Positions 3,202 through 30,300 of a stretch of 64,000 nucleotides of DNA are shown here, in pieces. The stretch comes from Stanieria cyanosphaera PCC 7437. Lineage in GTDB: Bacteria; Cyanobacteriota; Cyanobacteriia; Cyanobacteriales; Xenococcaceae. The notes below the pieces were generated by a model. That model was given only the letters and a program-made list of their open reading frames with translations, was not told the origin of the DNA and did not search any database. The stretch is taken from the NCBI RefSeq assembly GCF_000317575.1, contig NC_019748.1:4298501-4362500 (forward strand), read 5' to 3'. The position numbers and the translations under genes are program-made. The stretch's first letter is position 1, and the number at the start of each line of letters is the position of its first letter.

Positions 3202-5619
3202 ATGAATAATCAGCAAGATTTTTTAATTGTTGATACAGAAGGAAAGCATCAAGTAAATGAAATTGCTGTCATTAATAGTCAAGGTAATTTAATCTACGAA
3301 GCTTTTGTTCAAGAATATGCTGCTCACGATCACATTAAGTTAAATCGTAAACCTCTGCAACAAATTATTCTTGAATTTAATAATTTAGCACAGAATAAAC
3401 TATTAATTTGTCATCATGCTGACCACGATTTTCAAGTTTTACAAAATAGTTTTATTGCCGTAGAAGTTCCTTGGCAAAATTTTCAATTTGCTTGTACTTA
3501 CAAGTTAGCTAAAAAATATTTTCCCAATCTAATCAGTTATTCCCTTGAATATCTTAGTAAAAAACTTAATTTAAAGGTCAAGCAAAAATATTTTAATTCT
3601 CAACAAGCACATTCAGCTAGATACGATGCTGAATTTACTTATCAATTATATTGGAAAGTTATGGAAGAAATAACTATTAAAAGATTACAGAATCAACCCA
3701 ATCCTTTTGGGAGTAGTAGAGTAGATACTCCTTTTCAAGAACATCTCGATTTGACTTCTATTTATAACAATCAATTTGCCACTTTAAAATCCATTATTAC
3801 TGATATTAAATACGATCAAAATCATCAAAGTAAAGGAGTTATAGTTATTGGTGAGCCAGGAACAGGAAAAACTCATTTAATGATGCGATTGGCGCAAGAA
3901 GTACTCGAAGTTAATCGGTTACTTTTTATTCGTCAACCGAATAATCCAGATGCAGTTATTTATCATACTTACAGTAGAATTTTAGAATCTTTAATTGAAA
4001 AAGTAACTCAAAGCAATTACACCCAACTAGAATATTTACTAGCTAATAGTTTTAGAAAAATAATTCAAAATAATCTCATCGATAATACCAATCAAAAAGA
4101 TCAATTTATTTTAGCTGCAACTCAAACTAATCCTCTCGAACTTTATGATAGTTTAGGCACGGATGGTACTCAGAAAAAACGCGACTATTGGCAACACATT
4201 GAAAAAAGAACTTTAGAATGGTGGCTAGAACATTATGGTGGAGCAGGTTATTCTTTAGAAATTATCAAAGGTATTATTAAGTTTTGTAGTTATTCAGATT
4301 TTAATTATAAAAAATTAGTCACTCGATGGCTAGCTGCTGATGAACTAGCACCAGAAGAACTAGATAAAATAAAATTAAATAATTGGAATGAAGAAATCAG
4401 TAAAGAAAATTTTTCTTTAGAAGCGATCGCGGTTCTGAGTAAGCTTTCTCTTTTAGATGAACCTCTAATTATTATTTTCGATCAACTAGAAGGTTTAGGT
4501 TTAAAGCATCACGAAAAATTGCTATTAAGTTTTGGCGAAGCAATTAAAGAAATTTTTACTCATGTCCCAAATAGTTTGATTATTTTTAATTTGTTTCCCA
4601 GTCGTTGGCAACATTTTCAACAGATTCTTGATGGCTCTATTGTAGACCGTATTTCTCAATATCAAGTTACCTTAGAGAAACCGAATTATTCAGATTTAGA
4701 ACAAATTTTACAACTAAAAGCAGCTATCATTGATTTAGATGTAAAAACTTTATTTACCGAGCAAGAATTAGTAAATATTTTAGCAGGTAATTCTATTCGT
4801 GCAGTTTTAAATCGGGCTGCGGATTATTATCGTTATAAAGTCAATCAAATTCCTTTACCACAATTATCTTCTCAATCTTTAACTCATTCTTTAGCTTCAG
4901 AAGAAACAATTTTACCAAGAATTGAAAAATTAGAACAGCAATTTACACAGTTGCAAAAATTATTAGCTAATTTAGCTCAAGCTTTTAGTGGTTTTACCAA
5001 TACATTAGCTGTAACAAATAAACAAGAATTACAATCAAACGAACCTAATAATTATCCTACTAATCAAGAAGTTATTGATTATCTAGAAACTCAGAAAAAG
5101 TTATTAGAACAAGACTACGATAAACTACAAATTATTAGTGATAGTGATGATATTGGTAAGTTAAAAACTATCATAGAAGCTTTTCAAACTATTGTTAATT
5201 TAGAAATAGATCATTTGAGGTTAGGTAAAAAAAAGATTCCCGATCATCTGGTAGTCAAAAAAACAAACTACACTCTGGTAATTGGATTTTTACAAATAGA
5301 TGGTACTGCTTTTACGACTCGAATAAAAAACTTTAATGAATTAGTAATCAATCATAAAGAAATTAGATTTTTACTGCTTAGAGACAATAGAAAACCTAAA
5401 CTTACAGGTAAAGTTGCTCAAGAAGAAATAACCAAATTAAATAATTCTGCTAATGGAAAATTTTCTCTAATTGATCGCGATAATAGAATTAGTTTTGAAG
5501 TAATTTATCGCTTAGTTACAGATATTTACAATCGAGATTTTGATGTATCTTTGGTAGAAGCTTTTAATGCTCTTAAACAACAATTAAATAATTATTGGCT
5601 AATTAAACTAATGCAATAA
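3202..5619 (+). CDS. DEDDh exonuclease fused to P-loop ATPase, 805 aa, function unknown
   Basis: Domains seen in order: (1) residues 1-155, a DEDDh 3'-5' exonuclease fold, with Exo I DTEG (Asp11, Glu13), Exo II in HHADHDFQVL (Asp76) and Exo III HSARYD (His137, Asp142). (2) About 190-560, a P-loop ATPase with Walker A GEPGTGKT (217-224) and Walker B LIIIFDQLE (Asp427, Glu430), followed by a sensor-like strand IIFNLFPSRW. (3) A coiled coil at about 572-600. (4) A mixed alpha/beta C-terminal region, about 650-805, that I do not recognise. All exonuclease and ATPase residues look intact. The fusion suggests ATP-driven processing or sensing of nucleic acid, perhaps defence or repair; that is inference. 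The gene is very AT-rich and lies between inverted repeat copies. Confidence 0.8.
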   Translation: MNNQQDFLIVDTEGKHQVNEIAVINSQGNLIYEAFVQEYAAHDHIKLNRKPLQQIILEFNNLAQNKLLICHHADHDFQVLQNSFIAVEVPWQNFQFACTYKLAKKYFPNLISYSLEYLSKKLNLKVKQKYFNSQQAHSARYDAEFTYQLYWKVMEEITIKRLQNQPNPFGSSRVDTPFQEHLDLTSIYNNQFATLKSIITDIKYDQNHQSKGVIVIGEPGTGKTHLMMRLAQEVLEVNRLLFIRQPNNPDAVIYHTYSRILESLIEKVTQSNYTQLEYLLANSFRKIIQNNLIDNTNQKDQFILAATQTNPLELYDSLGTDGTQKKRDYWQHIEKRTLEWWLEHYGGAGYSLEIIKGIIKFCSYSDFNYKKLVTRWLAADELAPEELDKIKLNNWNEEISKENFSLEAIAVLSKLSLLDEPLIIIFDQLEGLGLKHHEKLLLSFGEAIKEIFTHVPNSLIIFNLFPSRWQHFQQILDGSIVDRISQYQVTLEKPNYSDLEQILQLKAAIIDLDVKTLFTEQELVNILAGNSIRAVLNRAADYYRYKVNQIPLPQLSSQSLTHSLASEETILPRIEKLEQQFTQLQKLLANLAQAFSGFTNTLAVTNKQELQSNEPNNYPTNQEVIDYLETQKKLLEQDYDKLQIISDSDDIGKLKTIIEAFQTIVNLEIDHLRLGKKKIPDHLVVKKTNYTLVIGFLQIDGTAFTTRIKNFNELVINHKEIRFLLLRDNRKPKLTGKVAQEEITKLNNSANGKFSLIDRDNRISFEVIYRLVTDIYNRDFDVSLVEAFNALKQQLNNYWLIKLMQ

Positions 5620-23614: not shown

Positions 23615-23956
23615 ATGAAACTGTTAAACCCATCAATAGAACAGTTAGTTCAAGAAATAGTAGCTGTAAATCACGCTTGGAAAGAAGCAAAAGAAATATT
23701 TAATGATTCTGCTTCGCCTTTGGTAACATCTTTAAGAGACTTAAAAACACGTTTGCAGATAAGATTATTGCGTACTTATGCACCAAAGCAAGTTTATTTA
23801 GCTGAAGATCGAGAAACCGAAAGTGAAGAACCACTATATGGTTTGCTTCTTGTTAATTCAATTGAAAACTGGAAAGACGCTGCACATATTCCAGTAAGAG
23901 TAGTAAAAGAACATCTTTTAACTGAAGAAATACAACGCTACATAAGATTTCATTAG
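23615..23956 (+). CDS. small protein of unknown function, first gene of the Zorya-like cluster
   Basis: A 113-aa soluble protein, mildly acidic and helical at the N-terminus (residues 1-60, EQLVQEIVAVNHAWKEAKEIF). The compact C-terminus contains LYGLLLVNSIENWKDAAHIP and EEIQRYIRF. I do not recognise it. It lies 54 bp upstream of zorA on the same strand, inside the block between glmU and hemB, so it is probably co-transcribed with the motor genes. It is not one of the canonical Zorya proteins (ZorA-ZorG) as I know them. Possible roles are sensor, regulator or immunity accessory, without direct evidence. Confidence 0.7.
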   Translation: MKLLNPSIEQLVQEIVAVNHAWKEAKEIFNDSASPLVTSLRDLKTRLQIRLLRTYAPKQVYLAEDRETESEEPLYGLLLVNSIENWKDAAHIPVRVVKEHLLTEEIQRYIRFH

Positions 23957-24010
23957 TTAAATATATCAAAATTTTACAACAACAGAATTATTTAAAAACA
24001 GGAGTAAATA

Positions 24011-26356
24011 ATGGTACTTTTGCTCAATAACTTACTACTCAACGTAGTTTTTGTTGCTTTTATTTTTGCCGTCGCAATTTGGGCTATATGGACAGAGATA
24101 AAATCTGTTAATGATTATAAAAAAGAGTTGAAATTAACTGAAGAAGCAACCGAATGTCTTAAAAAAAATCAATTAAAACAAGAAATACCACATCAAGAAG
24201 TAGGAGAAGAAATTAGAAAATGGTTATTTAATCATGTTGATGGTCAACTTGAAAGCTCAAAATTTATTCCAAGAAAAGAAGATAATCGTTTTGTCTTGTT
24301 ATCTTATCCAACTATTTTAAGTAAACCAGTACCTCGTAGCACGGTTTATTTTGTACCTACATTACTGACAACTTTGGGTATTTTTGGAACTTTTTTTGGT
24401 ATTTCTGTTGGTATTTCGGGAGTAAATCTTGGAGAGTTAAATGATGCTTCGTCACTATTAACTACAAGTACTCAATTGCTTTCGGGTATGAAAACTGCTT
24501 TCTTTACTTCTTTAGCAGGACTTTCTGGAGCAATACCCTTAATGTTTATTATTGCTCGTCAGACCAAACAAAAAGAAAGAAATCGTAATCAACTGCGAAA
24601 ATATTTAAGCGAGGTTGCTTTCTTAGAAACTTCCGAACGTCTTCTTTCCCGTTTCGATCATACCTCTAGTCGGGATGCTGCTAAAACACTAGAAGAGGTT
24701 GCAAAAAATCTTAAAGGTTTAAGTCAATTTCATCCCGATGCGATTGGCAATGCTGTAAAACAGGCACTTGCTTCAGAAGACAGTCTTTTAGTTCAGCAGT
24801 TAAAAGAAATTCAGAAATTACAAAAAATACAGAACGAACAATTTAATCCAGACTCAATTGCTCAAGCAATTAATCAAGAGCTTAAGTTATTAATTAATCC
24901 TATTAGTCATAAATTAGAAAAAATCGATCATTTAGTAAAAAATACTACTAATTTACCTCAATTAACCCCAGAAGCGATCGCAATTAAAACAAAACAACAA
25001 CTCGAACCTCATCTAACTAAGTTACTAGCGAATACTACTAATTTACCTCAATTAACCCCAGAAGCGATCGCAATTAAAACAGCAGAACAATTTCGGTTAA
25101 TTATCACACCGATTTCTCAAGATTTAGGCAAAATTAGGGAAATACAAGAAACTCAAAAACAAACTGTTGAATTATTAGTTCAACAACTCCGCAATGAATT
25201 AATTGAACCAGTTGTTGAGCGGTTAGATCAAAGTGCTAACTTAACTCAAGAAGCTTCTGAAGCTGTTAGAGAACTGAAAAATGAATTAGGCGGTATTACT
25301 CAAAGTTTAGCAGGAGCAGTCGAAACGATTCAAATCTTCCAAAAAGACACTCTTACTGAACTTCAACAATTTGCTACTAGCTTACACATTATTCTCAAAG
25401 ATTTTCGTGAAGAAACTAAAGGTGTTCTAGAGCAAGTGGGTTCAGAAATTAATCAAGCAGTTGCTCAAAGTGTAGCTGGTATGGAAGCACAGAGACAAGC
25501 TTTTGCTGAAAGTGCCAATAAAGCAGCTAAAACCTTCCGAGGCATCAGGGAAGACTTGGAATCAGCATTGTCTACTCAAGCGGAACAACAAAAAGCAATG
25601 CTAGAAGGAGTTGAGTCTCAGACTAGACAGATTTTATTGGAAACAACCGCAGCTTTCCAAGATCAATCAAATACTTTAAAAACAGTTGGACAAGAAGCTT
25701 CTAGTTTAATGAATCAAGCAAAAGATAATCTGCTTGGTACTTTAAGCAATATCGATCTAATGCTGCAAAATACTCGTCAAACTGTACAACAAGAGTTAGA
25801 AAGATTCCGCCTCGACTATCAAGCTGCACTGTCAGAATTTTTTACTCAACAAAATAACTTACTCAACGATACTCTAGGTCAACAGCGTGAAGGATTAGCT
25901 CAAGTAGTTGTCAATTTACAACATACTTTCGATGAAGAAATTCAGAAACGCCAAGAAATGAGCGAACAAGTCAATCAAAGTTTAGTAAAAATCAAACATA
26001 CAGTAGAAACGGTTAGTAATCTTGCCAATACCTTTGGATTAACTTCTGGTGAACGTTTAGGTCAATTAACGGAATTGGCACGAACTATTGGAAATGAAGC
26101 ACATCGGGTAGAAAGAGCTTATCAAAACATGACCAATCAATTCAACGAAGCTCTTACAAAAGGAAATAAAGAGCTATTTGAATATCTTCAGCAAGCTAAG
26201 GAATCTTATAGTAACAATCTTACAGAATTAGACCTAGCTGCTGCTCAAGTCTGTCAAAAACTTGACCAAAATTCTCACGGTTTGATGAGTGTAGCGCAAT
26301 ATTTAGTAGCTGCTGCTAATGAACTGAAAAACGGTCAAGGGAGCATTGAATCATGA
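24011..26356 (+). CDS. zorA: ZorA-like MotA/ExbB-type motor protein with long coiled-coil tail
   Basis: A 781-aa protein with hydrophobic segments at about 5-27, 112-135 (FVPTLLTTLGIFGTFFGISVG) and 161-183 (MKTAFFTSLAGLSGAIPLMFI). This is the MotA/TolQ/ExbB proton-channel layout. From about 185 the chain is a roughly 600-residue helical tail. Four degenerate repeats lie near 240-370 ((Q)-F/L-x-P-D/E-A/S-I-A), two of them from an exact 50-bp duplication. In Zorya, ZorA5-ZorB2 is a proton-driven motor in the inner membrane whose tail projects into the cytoplasm to signal phage attack. A good Shine-Dalgarno (GGAG at 24001) precedes the ATG. The stop overlaps the ZorB start (ATGA). Confidence 0.85.
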   Translation: MVLLLNNLLLNVVFVAFIFAVAIWAIWTEIKSVNDYKKELKLTEEATECLKKNQLKQEIPHQEVGEEIRKWLFNHVDGQLESSKFIPRKEDNRFVLLSYPTILSKPVPRSTVYFVPTLLTTLGIFGTFFGISVGISGVNLGELNDASSLLTTSTQLLSGMKTAFFTSLAGLSGAIPLMFIIARQTKQKERNRNQLRKYLSEVAFLETSERLLSRFDHTSSRDAAKTLEEVAKNLKGLSQFHPDAIGNAVKQALASEDSLLVQQLKEIQKLQKIQNEQFNPDSIAQAINQELKLLINPISHKLEKIDHLVKNTTNLPQLTPEAIAIKTKQQLEPHLTKLLANTTNLPQLTPEAIAIKTAEQFRLIITPISQDLGKIREIQETQKQTVELLVQQLRNELIEPVVERLDQSANLTQEASEAVRELKNELGGITQSLAGAVETIQIFQKDTLTELQQFATSLHIILKDFREETKGVLEQVGSEINQAVAQSVAGMEAQRQAFAESANKAAKTFRGIREDLESALSTQAEQQKAMLEGVESQTRQILLETTAAFQDQSNTLKTVGQEASSLMNQAKDNLLGTLSNIDLMLQNTRQTVQQELERFRLDYQAALSEFFTQQNNLLNDTLGQQREGLAQVVVNLQHTFDEEIQKRQEMSEQVNQSLVKIKHTVETVSNLANTFGLTSGERLGQLTELARTIGNEAHRVERAYQNMTNQFNEALTKGNKELFEYLQQAKESYSNNLTELDLAAAQVCQKLDQNSHGLMSVAQYLVAAANELKNGQGSIES
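24941..25080 (+). repeat. exact 50-bp direct repeat, 90-bp period, within zorA tail
   Basis: The units are 24941-24990 and 25031-25080 and are identical by eye; each encodes TTNLPQLTPEAIAIKT and contains GCGATCGC. The 90-bp spacing keeps the frame and adds 30 residues to the coiled-coil region. Confidence 0.9.
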
Positions 26357-27147
26357 ATAATTTCCCTGACTATGAAATAGAAACGGAATCAGAAGAACAG
26401 GATTCTGGAGTCTATCTATCTATTAGCGATTTAATGTCCAGTGTATTGATGATTTTTGTTCTTTTATTTATTACTGTACAAATTCAACTTCAAGCAAAAG
26501 TTAATCAAGTAAAGCAACTAGAAATACAACTTCAGGCAGAAATTGACAAAACAAAAAAATTAGAAATACAACTCCAAGCAGAAATTGACAAGGCAAAACA
26601 GTTAGAAATACAACTAAAAAAATATAAAAAAGCAGTTGATGAACTACCAATTAGAATTCTTAACGCTTTAGAAGGAAAAATAGGAGGAAAAGGTTTATTT
26701 ACAGTCGATCCAACCACAGGAGATGTTAGTATAGGCGATCGCATTTTGTTTGATGAGGGAAGTGCTGAACTTAAACCAGAAGGTAAAAAGTTTCTTCAGC
26801 AATTTATCCCGACTTACAGCAACATCATTTTTTCTGATAGTATGTTTGATCGTCAAATTACTCGTGTGGTAATTGAAGGACATACCAGTTCCAAAGGTTC
26901 TGATAAAGAGAATATGGAATTAAGCTTGCGTAGAGCTTTAGCTGTTTCTGATTATATTTTGTCTAATCAATTCAAGTTTTCTACTAAAGAACGTTTCAAA
27001 AAGAAAATATTAGCATCTGGTCGTGGTGAAATTGATGCTAACCAAAAAATCGATCACTCAAGCGATCGCAAAGTTGTTTTTCGTTTTCAATTTCGCAGAG
27101 AAAATTTTGAACAATTTCTTCAGTCAAACAATACTAACAAAAAATAA
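26353..27147 (+). CDS. zorB: ZorB-like OmpA/MotB-domain stator protein
   Basis: A 264-aa protein with an acidic cytoplasmic N-terminus. Asp26 in SISDLMSSVLMIFVLLF stands at the head of the single TM helix (about 27-45), as does the proton-carrying Asp of MotB/ZorB. A periplasmic coiled coil (about 45-90) is built from 14-residue repeats (KKLEIQLQAEIDK). The C-terminal OmpA-like peptidoglycan-binding domain (about 115-255) has GDRILFDEGSAELKPEG and VVIEGHTSSKGS. It would anchor the ZorA motor to the cell wall. The start overlaps the zorA stop, and the next gene begins 2 bp after its stop. Confidence 0.88.
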   Translation: MNNFPDYEIETESEEQDSGVYLSISDLMSSVLMIFVLLFITVQIQLQAKVNQVKQLEIQLQAEIDKTKKLEIQLQAEIDKAKQLEIQLKKYKKAVDELPIRILNALEGKIGGKGLFTVDPTTGDVSIGDRILFDEGSAELKPEGKKFLQQFIPTYSNIIFSDSMFDRQITRVVIEGHTSSKGSDKENMELSLRRALAVSDYILSNQFKFSTKERFKKKILASGRGEIDANQKIDHSSDRKVVFRFQFRRENFEQFLQSNNTNKK

Positions 27148-27149
27148 TA

Positions 27150-28658
27150 ATGAATTTTCATTTTTCTCAATTAAATTTACCTCCTCTAACTCAAGTTCGT
27201 TGCGAAGAATTAATTAAATTAGCAGGAAATAACATTAATAATAATTTTCCTCAACCACTACAAATTCCATCTTGTATTACTCAAAGTTTCATAACTCAAC
27301 CTCGTAGCATAGACGAAATTATTTCGGACATTCAACATGGTCAAATTGACCAAATAACTTTACTGGAGTGGATTTATTGCCTTTATCTCAAACAGAAATG
27401 GGATCTACAAAATCCAGAACAAGCAGAAAACACTTCTGAAGCAATTTGGCAAGCAGCAAATGATAATGCTTGGTTAAAGCATCGTTTATTTTGGGATTTA
27501 ATACTTAATTATAATGAAGAGAATCAAACGCTAGCTTCTTCTTTAATTAACAGCTTTAGTATTTTTATTCCTAAAACTAATTCAGAAAAAGTATCAGTAC
27601 AAATTATTGATGTTTTATCTAAACCATTCCCTGCTCCCGAACTAGCTAAAATAAGCTGGCAAAATTTACTTACCCCACGACAACTTTTAAACAATTATCA
27701 ACTTCCTGATAAAATTGATGCTGTCAAAGAGGCTTTCAACTATGTTGCTATCCAATTTACAAAAGCTAAAAATCCTAGCAAACAACAAATTGAATGGTTG
27801 TTGAATTGTTTAAAACAAATGTCTAGCGAACAAGAATTAAAAACAGTAGATTATTTACTTATTAATACTTCTCCAGAAATAACCCACTCTCACCCAGAAT
27901 TAGCTACTTGGATATCTCAAAATTATGGTTCAGGTGTGATTAATTCCCGTTGGAATGAACTTTCTTCAACTGCCAAAAATGCTCTTAAAAAATGGATTGG
28001 TGCAGTTAATTATCGAGATTTTCAAAAATTAGTTGATGTTATCTTAAAAAAATTATATTTACAAGAATACGAAGCTAAGCGACTGAGAAATAGAAAAGAA
28101 TTTTGGGCTAATTATAGCGATCGCTTTGAACGAATTCGGATTTTATTACCTCAATCTTCTGTTAAAGTTTTAGGAAATAATTTTGCCGATCAAGATATCA
28201 GTATTTTAGTTGAAGATGGTAGCAGTCCAACCGAAGTTTGTATTTTTGATTTTGGTGAATGGTTTATTGTAGAATTTTTTCGAGGTAATGGTAGCGAAAC
28301 TCGTTTGTTTAAAAATGATTCTATTGTAGAAAAAAAACTTTTTCATTCTCATGAATTATCTGTCAAAAGATTGCGCTGCCTGGGTGGAGAAATTCACGAT
28401 CACGAATTTATATGGCAATATTATTGTGAACAATGGTTAAGAAAAAATAATATTCGTCCAAATCAAGGTACACACTATTTTATTGGTTTACCTGATAGAT
28501 ATAGCAAGTATCATTCTCAAACAGGACTACCAGAACCTTCTTTTGAAAATAAGCAAAAACGAAGCTACAAATTAGAATATTGGCAAAGAGAAATTAATAG
28601 ATTAGAACAAGAAGCTAAACGATTTTGCCAAGACAATCAAATTTTTCAATCAGTTTAA
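27150..28658 (+). CDS. zorC: ZorC-like protein with EH_signature-type region
   Basis: A 502-aa soluble protein that is mostly alpha-helical. The segment at about 310-440 contains RNRKEFWANYSDRFERIRIL, then alternating strands (DISILVEDGSSPTEVCIFDF, FIVEFFRGNG, ETRLF) and a late WQYYCEQWLRKN. This matches the EH_signature domain that defines ZorC of type I Zorya (K/R-x-FW-x-x-Y-S-D-R near the start). In the E. coli system ZorC binds DNA and acts with the helicase-nuclease ZorD. No ZorD is encoded here: 115 bp later the convergent hemB begins. The assignment is by motif pattern and operon position. Confidence 0.7.
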   Translation: MNFHFSQLNLPPLTQVRCEELIKLAGNNINNNFPQPLQIPSCITQSFITQPRSIDEIISDIQHGQIDQITLLEWIYCLYLKQKWDLQNPEQAENTSEAIWQAANDNAWLKHRLFWDLILNYNEENQTLASSLINSFSIFIPKTNSEKVSVQIIDVLSKPFPAPELAKISWQNLLTPRQLLNNYQLPDKIDAVKEAFNYVAIQFTKAKNPSKQQIEWLLNCLKQMSSEQELKTVDYLLINTSPEITHSHPELATWISQNYGSGVINSRWNELSSTAKNALKKWIGAVNYRDFQKLVDVILKKLYLQEYEAKRLRNRKEFWANYSDRFERIRILLPQSSVKVLGNNFADQDISILVEDGSSPTEVCIFDFGEWFIVEFFRGNGSETRLFKNDSIVEKKLFHSHELSVKRLRCLGGEIHDHEFIWQYYCEQWLRKNNIRPNQGTHYFIGLPDRYSKYHSQTGLPEPSFENKQKRSYKLEYWQREINRLEQEAKRFCQDNQIFQSV

Positions 28659-29919: not shown

Positions 29920-30300
29920 GGGGCCGTAACGGTTTCGACAGGTTGGCGAAAGCTAACCCGTGATACAGGTCGAGAGGGAGTCAACTCTCGGAAATCCAGG
30001 CTCAAAACAAAAAAGTAACTGCGAATAACATCGTAAAATTTGAGCGCCAGGCGGTATTAGCCTAGGTCTAAACTAGACTTGCTCGCTTTTAGTTTGACTC
30101 CGTTAAGGACTAAAAGTTTAACCCCAACGGATGCATCTTTTATTTGCCTCTGGTCAATTAAAAGGTAAAGACTTTACTAGAGAATCCCGCCATCAGGGAT
30201 AAGAGATGGTTCCCGCTCTGAGGATCAGAAGAGCTAAACCTGTGAATGAGCGGAAAGTCAATATCCAGTCTGGACAGCAGTTCGACTCTGCTCGGCTCCA
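29920..30300 (+). ncRNA. ssrA: tmRNA (one-piece), tag ANNIVKFERQAVLA
   Basis: The 5' end GGGGCCGTAACGGTTTCGAC and the 3' end TTCGACTCTGCTCGGCTCCA pair as the tRNA-like acceptor (GGGGCCG with CGGCTCC, discriminator A) and T-arm. CCA is not encoded. The tag reading frame starts GCG at 30021 and ends TAG at 30063-30065, encoding ANNIVKFERQAVLA, a cyanobacterial-type tag (ANN start) with a hydrophobic C-terminus. The rest folds as pseudoknots. The RNA rescues stalled ribosomes with SmpB. It is a single uninterrupted gene, not the permuted two-piece form of some picocyanobacteria. Confidence 0.96.

What the first reader, a model, noticed from the sequence alone, without database searches (positions are those of the whole stretch)
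23615..28658. Zorya-like cluster (ZorA, ZorB, ZorC) without ZorD, with an extra small gene, between glmU and hemB
Seen: the MotA/ExbB-type protein with a 600-residue tail (24011), the OmpA/MotB-type protein with Asp26 at its TM (26353) and an EH_signature-like protein (27150) lie in one tight operon (overlap of 4 bp, gap of 2 bp). The operon is bounded by housekeeping genes. Established: type I Zorya is ZorA-ZorB-ZorC-ZorD, with ZorD the helicase-nuclease effector; type II has ZorE and type III ZorF/ZorG. Inference: a ZorABC module with no visible ZorD would be a reduced or new variant, or use a trans-acting effector.
Basis: partly seen in the sequence, partly recalled or inferred. Interest (0 to 1): 0.88.

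Follow-up and report, generated by a model that had tools for sequence, protein, structure and literature searches.

The report
ZorD-less Zorya with small fourth gene
A cyanobacterial relative of the Zorya anti-phage motor keeps the motor (ZorA, ZorB) and the ZorC protein, never has the nuclease-helicase ZorD that known type I systems need, and instead always travels with a small, previously unnamed protein, so it is probably a distinct Zorya subtype with a different effector step.

Summary
PADLOC places the proteins as ZorA1 (1004 bits), ZorB1 (262) and ZorC1 (803). A model of the ZorC aligns with the solved E. coli ZorC (8r68, Z 15.0; next 5.8). No ZorD exists nearby or elsewhere: NCBIfam ZorD exceeds its cut-off in 0 of 33 zor-bearing cyanobacterial genomes, and every hit covers only the generic helicase part. 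This is not a reduced or decaying type I locus. The "extra small gene" (113 aa, here ZorX) is the conserved fourth gene: 36 intact X-A-B-C (or A-B-C-X) operons were found. ZorX occurs in 22 and ZorC in 24 of 390 cyanobacterial genomes, 21 in common (P = 1.5e-30); the exceptions are decayed loci. No fifth gene recurs. Patchy distribution, frequent decay, fast protein evolution, a plasmid copy beside DISARM-like genes and a second gene order argue for defence and against a housekeeping motor. ZorX matches no Pfam, NCBIfam, PADLOC, PHROGs or PDB family; its confident model (pLDDT 93) has no clear fold match. Best reading: a new ZorD-less Zorya subtype, with a ZorAB sensor-motor acting on ZorC plus ZorX. 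Phage defence and the effector step are inferred, not shown.

The parts
23615..23956 (+). zorX: 113-aa protein of unknown family, constant fourth gene of the cassette; predicted helix-helix-three strands-helix-helix
   Evidence: Present in 48 loci with zorA/B/C; 22 of 390 genomes, 21 of them with zorC; no Pfam/NCBIfam/PADLOC/PHROGs hit; AlphaFold2 pLDDT 93; dN/dS 0.36 between two species
24011..26356 (+). zorA: MotA/ExbB/TolQ-type motor subunit with long cytoplasmic tail
   Evidence: PADLOC ZorA1 PDLC00597 1004 bits; matches Shewanella type I ZorA 8vvn_C; G-T-F and T-S motifs in the predicted membrane region conserved at 95% or more
26353..27147 (+). zorB: MotB-like subunit with Asp26 in the TM helix and OmpA/peptidoglycan-binding domain
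   Evidence: PADLOC ZorB1 PDLC00609 262 bits; OmpA PF00691 54 bits; Asp26 aligned with E. coli ZorB Asp26 and at least 95% conserved in 37 sequences
27150..28658 (+). zorC: EH-signature protein
   Evidence: PADLOC ZorC1 PDLC00618 803 bits; PF15611 85 bits; model aligns with solved E. coli ZorC 8r68, Z 15.0, 347 residues, rmsd 7.8; Glu375 aligned with E. coli Glu400, His418 conserved

Best explanation
The four genes are a cyanobacterial Zorya subtype, X-A-B-C, that lacks ZorD and carries the small protein ZorX in its place. Likely mechanism: ZorA5B2 sits in the inner membrane as an ion-driven motor anchored to peptidoglycan through the OmpA domain of ZorB. Local damage to the envelope by an injecting phage engages ZorB, ions flow past Asp26, and the ZorA tail rotates or changes shape and recruits ZorC to the site (steps proposed for type I and II; here inferred from conserved parts). 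In type I the recruited ZorC acts with the helicase-nuclease ZorD. Here that step must be done by ZorC together with ZorX: either ZorX is an adaptor or regulator that lets ZorC act or brings in a host nuclease, or ZorC itself is the DNA-acting effector. Shown: gene content, constancy, fold of ZorC, absence of ZorD. Inferred: defence function and every mechanistic step.
For: ZorA1/ZorB1/ZorC1 assignments; ZorC model matches E. coli ZorC 8r68 at Z 15.0, next row 5.8; ZorB Asp26 and OmpA domain conserved. ZorD absent: 0 of 33 zor-bearing genomes over the NF041790 cut-off of 1500 bits, best about 321 bits, all matches starting at profile position 498 or later, whereas a real ZorD gives 1787 bits. 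Four families only recur at the loci: C in 55, A in 52, B in 50, X in 48; the next has 17 and is Nostoc synteny. 36 intact four-gene operons; pairwise distances of X and C correlate, Mantel r 0.92. X and C co-occur, P = 1.5e-30. A second gene order A-B-C-X in one lineage keeps X. Defence-like behaviour: 24 of 390 genomes, many decayed copies, a mobilizable plasmid copy next to a DISARM-like cluster, and zor genes evolving faster in protein sequence than flanking glmU and hemB.
Against: No phage challenge of any member was found. In E. coli, type I ZorABC without ZorD gives no defence (PMC11890865), so an unknown component must replace ZorD. ZorX has no recognisable catalytic motif or known fold. 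The correlation of X and C distances could reflect common descent of the whole operon and is no proof of contact. Gene distribution alone does not prove an anti-phage role. In many Nostoc genomes the cassette keeps the same neighbours, so it is partly vertically inherited.
Confidence: 0.7

Rival explanations
1. It is an ordinary type I Zorya that has recently lost zorD and is decaying.
For: Decayed copies of the cassette exist in several relatives.
Against: All four ORFs are open here and in the sister species, with dN/dS of 0.12-0.36. 36 intact ZorD-less operons in several families and no ZorD in any of 33 zor-bearing genomes show that absence of ZorD is the ordinary state of this lineage. 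Decayed copies have lost parts of A, B and C too.
Confidence: 0.04
2. ZorABC with a ZorD-like effector encoded elsewhere in the genome (trans-acting).
For: The genome has two SNF2 proteins; one aligns with PADLOC ZorD models at up to 449 bits.
Against: That one is the sll1366-family helicase (NF058636 693 bits, over its cut-off 550), lacks the ZorD N-terminal half and scores 294 bits against a ZorD cut-off of 1500; the other is HmaA of an Hma locus (1667 bits). The only Mrr-domain match is a methyltransferase-Mrr fusion. Helicase hits below the cut-off also occur in most control genomes, for example Synechococcus elongatus, which has no EH_Signature protein. A generic host nuclease or helicase recruited in trans cannot be excluded.
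Confidence: 0.1
3. A non-defence ion-driven motor of cyanobacteria (envelope maintenance, transport or motility).
For: MotAB-type motors serve such roles; in Nostoc the cassette keeps its neighbours over many species.
Against: Only about 6% of cyanobacterial genomes have it, with repeated decay, a plasmid copy and different surroundings in different families; ZorA, ZorB and ZorC fall in defence models.
Confidence: 0.14
4. ZorX is an unrelated small gene that only shares the promoter.
For: No detectable similarity to any Zorya protein.
Against: Present at 48 loci, always with zorABC genes, with 12 invariant positions in 37 sequences, retained in the rearranged A-B-C-X order, and no stand-alone copy in 390 genomes apart from one remnant.
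Confidence: 0.03

Closest known systems
Zorya type I (ZorA, ZorB, ZorC, ZorD)
   Same: ZorA/ZorB motor of the type I PADLOC groups, OmpA-type ZorB with Asp26, EH-signature ZorC with the fold of E. coli ZorC
   Different: No ZorD; an extra conserved protein ZorX; ZorC has lineage-specific conserved acidic residues (Glu362, Asp367) not conserved in four canonical ZorC; NCBIfam type I equivalog cut-offs for ZorB1 and ZorC not reached
Zorya type III (ZorA, ZorB, ZorF, ZorG)
   Same: Also uses ZorAB without ZorD, with other accessory genes (PMC8565338)
   Different: The present system keeps ZorC; no DUF3348 or DUF2894 protein in the operon
Zorya type II (ZorA, ZorB, ZorE)
   Same: ZorAB motor; no ZorD
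   Different: No ZorE/HNH protein in the operon; ZorC present

Membership tests
Zorya (superfamily) | ZorA: MotA/ExbB/TolQ motor subunit with long cytoplasmic tail | tested here: met
   PADLOC ZorA1 1004 bits; similar to solved type I ZorA 8vvn_C
Zorya (superfamily) | ZorB: TM helix with ion-carrying Asp and OmpA-type peptidoglycan-binding domain | tested here: met
   PADLOC ZorB1 262 bits, OmpA PF00691, Asp26 aligned and conserved
Zorya (superfamily) | Protection against phage | not testable with these tools
   needs an EOP assay
Zorya type I | ZorC with EH signature | tested here: met
   PF15611 over cut-off; PADLOC ZorC1 803 bits; model vs 8r68 Z 15.0, 347 aligned, rmsd 7.8; Glu375/His418 conserved
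Zorya type I | ZorD encoded with ZorABC | tested here: not met
   No helicase in the operon or its flanks; recurring genes are X, A, B, C only
Zorya type I | ZorD anywhere in the genome | tested here: not met
   0 of 33 zor-bearing genomes over the NF041790 cut-off
Zorya type I | NCBIfam equivalog cut-offs for ZorB1 and ZorC | tested here: not met
   ZorB1 NF041788 45 bits against 400; no NCBIfam hit for ZorC
Zorya type II | ZorE (HNH nickase) with ZorAB | tested here: not met
   no such protein among the four and no further recurring neighbour
Zorya type III | ZorF (DUF3348) and ZorG (DUF2894) | tested here: not met
   no such domains among the four

The most novel reading that the evidence does not exclude
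A new Zorya subtype whose effector is not ZorD: the motor delivers ZorC and ZorX, and either ZorC has gained its own nuclease-like site (conserved Glu362, Asp367, Glu375 and His418, of which the first two are not conserved in canonical ZorC) or ZorX is a new kind of effector or adaptor with a fold not matched in the PDB search.
Probability: 0.4. Interest if true: 0.75.

Novelty: new variant of a known kind. Interest (0 to 1): 0.62.

Why it matters
Type I Zorya is understood as a motor that brings ZorC and the nuclease ZorD to the phage entry site, and ZorABC alone does not defend in E. coli. A natural ZorABC lineage, spread over many cyanobacteria, with no ZorD separates the roles of ZorC and ZorD and asks directly what the motor really activates. 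It adds an undescribed component (ZorX) that the annotation libraries searched here miss, and gives cyanobacteria, for which no dedicated Zorya work was found in the papers searched, a testable system.

Tried and rejected
Trans-acting ZorD: SNF2 and Mrr proteins of the genome identified as sll1366-type helicase, HmaA and a methyltransferase-Mrr fusion. ZorX as a piece of ZorA, B, C or D: hhalign gave probabilities under 1%. ZorX by sequence in Pfam, NCBIfam, PADLOC, PHROGs and PDB sequences: nothing. ZorX by fold: Foldseek in PDB and BFVD, no match with E under 0.001; VIA rows are helical hairpins with Z under 8, which is uninformative. ZorX on viral contigs and ZorC in phage records: none. 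A fifth recurrent gene: none. An empty site between glmU and hemB in zor-less relatives: glmU was never within 1.5 kb of hemB in the other genera, so no clean empty site could be shown. Spread outside cyanobacteria: a genome scan of other phyla was not possible with the handles available; plasmids gave one Nostoc hit only. Literature: no paper with 'Zorya type IV' and none naming both ZorD and cyanobacteria was found in the held library; the main structural paper on type I (PMC11946911) is not held.

Full report
OBSERVATION. The four ORFs are as described: a 113-aa gene (23615-23956), zorA (24011-26356), zorB (26353-27147; 4-bp overlap) and zorC (27150-28658; 2-bp gap), all on the + strand, between glmU and hemB. 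PADLOC gives ZorA1 1004 bits, ZorB1 262 bits and ZorC1 803 bits; scores this high suggest that PADLOC's models already include close relatives of A, B and C. The EH_Signature Pfam model is over its cut-off. The 113-aa protein matches nothing convincing in PADLOC, Pfam, NCBIfam or PHROGs.

ZORC IS A REAL ZORC. A predicted model (pLDDT 87) was aligned by VIA-align with the solved E. coli ZorC (8r68): Z 15.0 over 347 residues (rmsd 7.8), the next row having Z 5.8. Profile comparison with four canonical ZorC gives probability 88%, E 3e-6. Glu375 aligns with Glu400 of E. coli ZorC, and His418 lies in the region of His443; that these two residues are the functional 'EH' pair in E. coli is from memory, not tested here. 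ZorB Asp26 aligns with Asp26 of E. coli ZorB and is conserved in at least 95% of 37 sequences.

NO ZORD, IN CIS OR TRANS. The genome has two SNF2 proteins. One is HmaA of an Hma locus (1667 bits). The other is an sll1366-family helicase, 294 bits against a ZorD cut-off of 1500, matching only the helicase part. A true ZorD from an E. coli plasmid scores 1787 bits (locus). In 33 zor-bearing cyanobacterial genomes no ZorD passes the cut-off; the best match is 321 bits and none reaches the N-terminal half of the profile. The only Mrr-domain match is fused to a DNA methyltransferase. By contrast, four canonical proteobacterial loci all show ZorA-B-C-D in one operon.

THE SMALL GENE IS THE FOURTH COMPONENT. 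Among the neighbourhoods fetched, four families recur: zorC in 55 loci, zorA in 52, zorB in 50 and zorX in 48; the next most common has 17 and reflects Nostoc synteny. 36 of 61 loci examined are intact four-gene operons; the rest are broken or lie at contig ends (two loci of one genome are counted apart when contigs split them). In 390 cyanobacterial genomes ZorX occurs in 22, ZorC in 24, both in 21 (P = 1.5e-30; genomes are related, so the P value is only a guide). The three ZorC-only genomes have interrupted or fragmentary loci and the one ZorX-only genome holds a partial copy. All over-cut-off EH_Signature matches in these 390 genomes are at the same loci, so no canonical ABCD locus was seen in this cyanobacterial sample. 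One lineage carries the order A-B-C-X, so X is kept even when the order changes. Pairwise distances of X correlate with those of A, B and C (Mantel r 0.88-0.92), as expected for joint inheritance.

WHAT ZORX LOOKS LIKE. Twelve positions are invariant in 37 sequences: N19, W22, K44, Q48, L51, L52, L62, D65, E72, H91, P93, R95. The model is confident (pLDDT 93, pTM 0.85): two long helices, a three-stranded sheet and two short helices. Foldseek found no match with E under 0.001 in PDB or viral models. VIA rows cover mainly the helical hairpin with Z under 8. No function can be read from it.

DEFENCE OR HOUSEKEEPING. The cassette is patchy (about 6% of genomes), often decayed, and present on a mobilizable Nostoc plasmid directly upstream of a DrmD/DpdE-type helicase and a DrmMI-like methyltransferase gene. 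Between the two species of this genus the zor proteins are 86-92% identical and GlmU/HemB 97-98%, while synonymous divergence differs less (0.17-0.30 against 0.14-0.18); dN/dS is 0.12-0.36 for zor and 0.06-0.08 for the flanks. This fits a selected but fast-evolving accessory system and not a universal motor. It does not prove defence.

MECHANISM. From work on type I and II (PMC11890865), ZorA5B2 is an ion-driven motor anchored to peptidoglycan, and loss of any component, ZorD included, abolishes type I defence. In the present lineage the motor, its Asp, the peptidoglycan-binding domain, the long ZorA tail and ZorC are all kept. The effector step must differ. ZorC of this lineage has conserved residues that four canonical ZorC do not share, notably Glu362 and Asp367 beside Glu375, so ZorC may itself have gained a metal site; or ZorX is the adaptor, regulator or effector. 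This is inference.

STATUS. By gene content it is not type I (ZorD tested, not met), II or III. It is a Zorya system by its motor and ZorC, and best described as a new subtype. Published subtypes in the papers read are I, II and III (PMC8565338, PMC11890865). Limits: other phyla could not be scanned, metagenomes were not available, and no experiment exists.

Noticed in passing
G000:C1:4278273-4294813 (L044:9773 to L045:6313), just upstream of the window: An Hma-type defence locus: HmaA (1667 bits), a HmaB methyltransferase cut short with transposon-like (TnpB-type) ORFs next to it, and HmaC (1060 bits).
   Followed up: partly
window 29920-30300: tmRNA gene (tag ANNIVKFERQAVLA) just beyond hemB, about 1.3 kb from the zor operon; tmRNA genes are common integration sites.
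   Followed up: no
L157:9995-21377 (Nostoc sp. HK-01 plasmid AP018320.1): zorXABC directly upstream of a DISARM-like cluster (DrmD/DpdE-like helicase, DrmMI-like methyltransferase, further helicase).
   Followed up: partly
L123:12854-18157: 1767-aa protein with DpdF-like and UvrD/GajB-like helicase parts close to the zor operon of a distant cyanobacterium.
   Followed up: no
L118:3267-6290: 1007-aa protein with an N-terminal caspase-like match near a decayed zorC.
   Followed up: no
window 3202-5619: 805-aa protein that reads as an exonuclease domain joined to an ATPase (read by eye only).
   Followed up: no
G000:C1:3297559 (L158): DNA methyltransferase fused to an Mrr-type nuclease domain, probably a restriction-modification protein.
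   Followed up: partly
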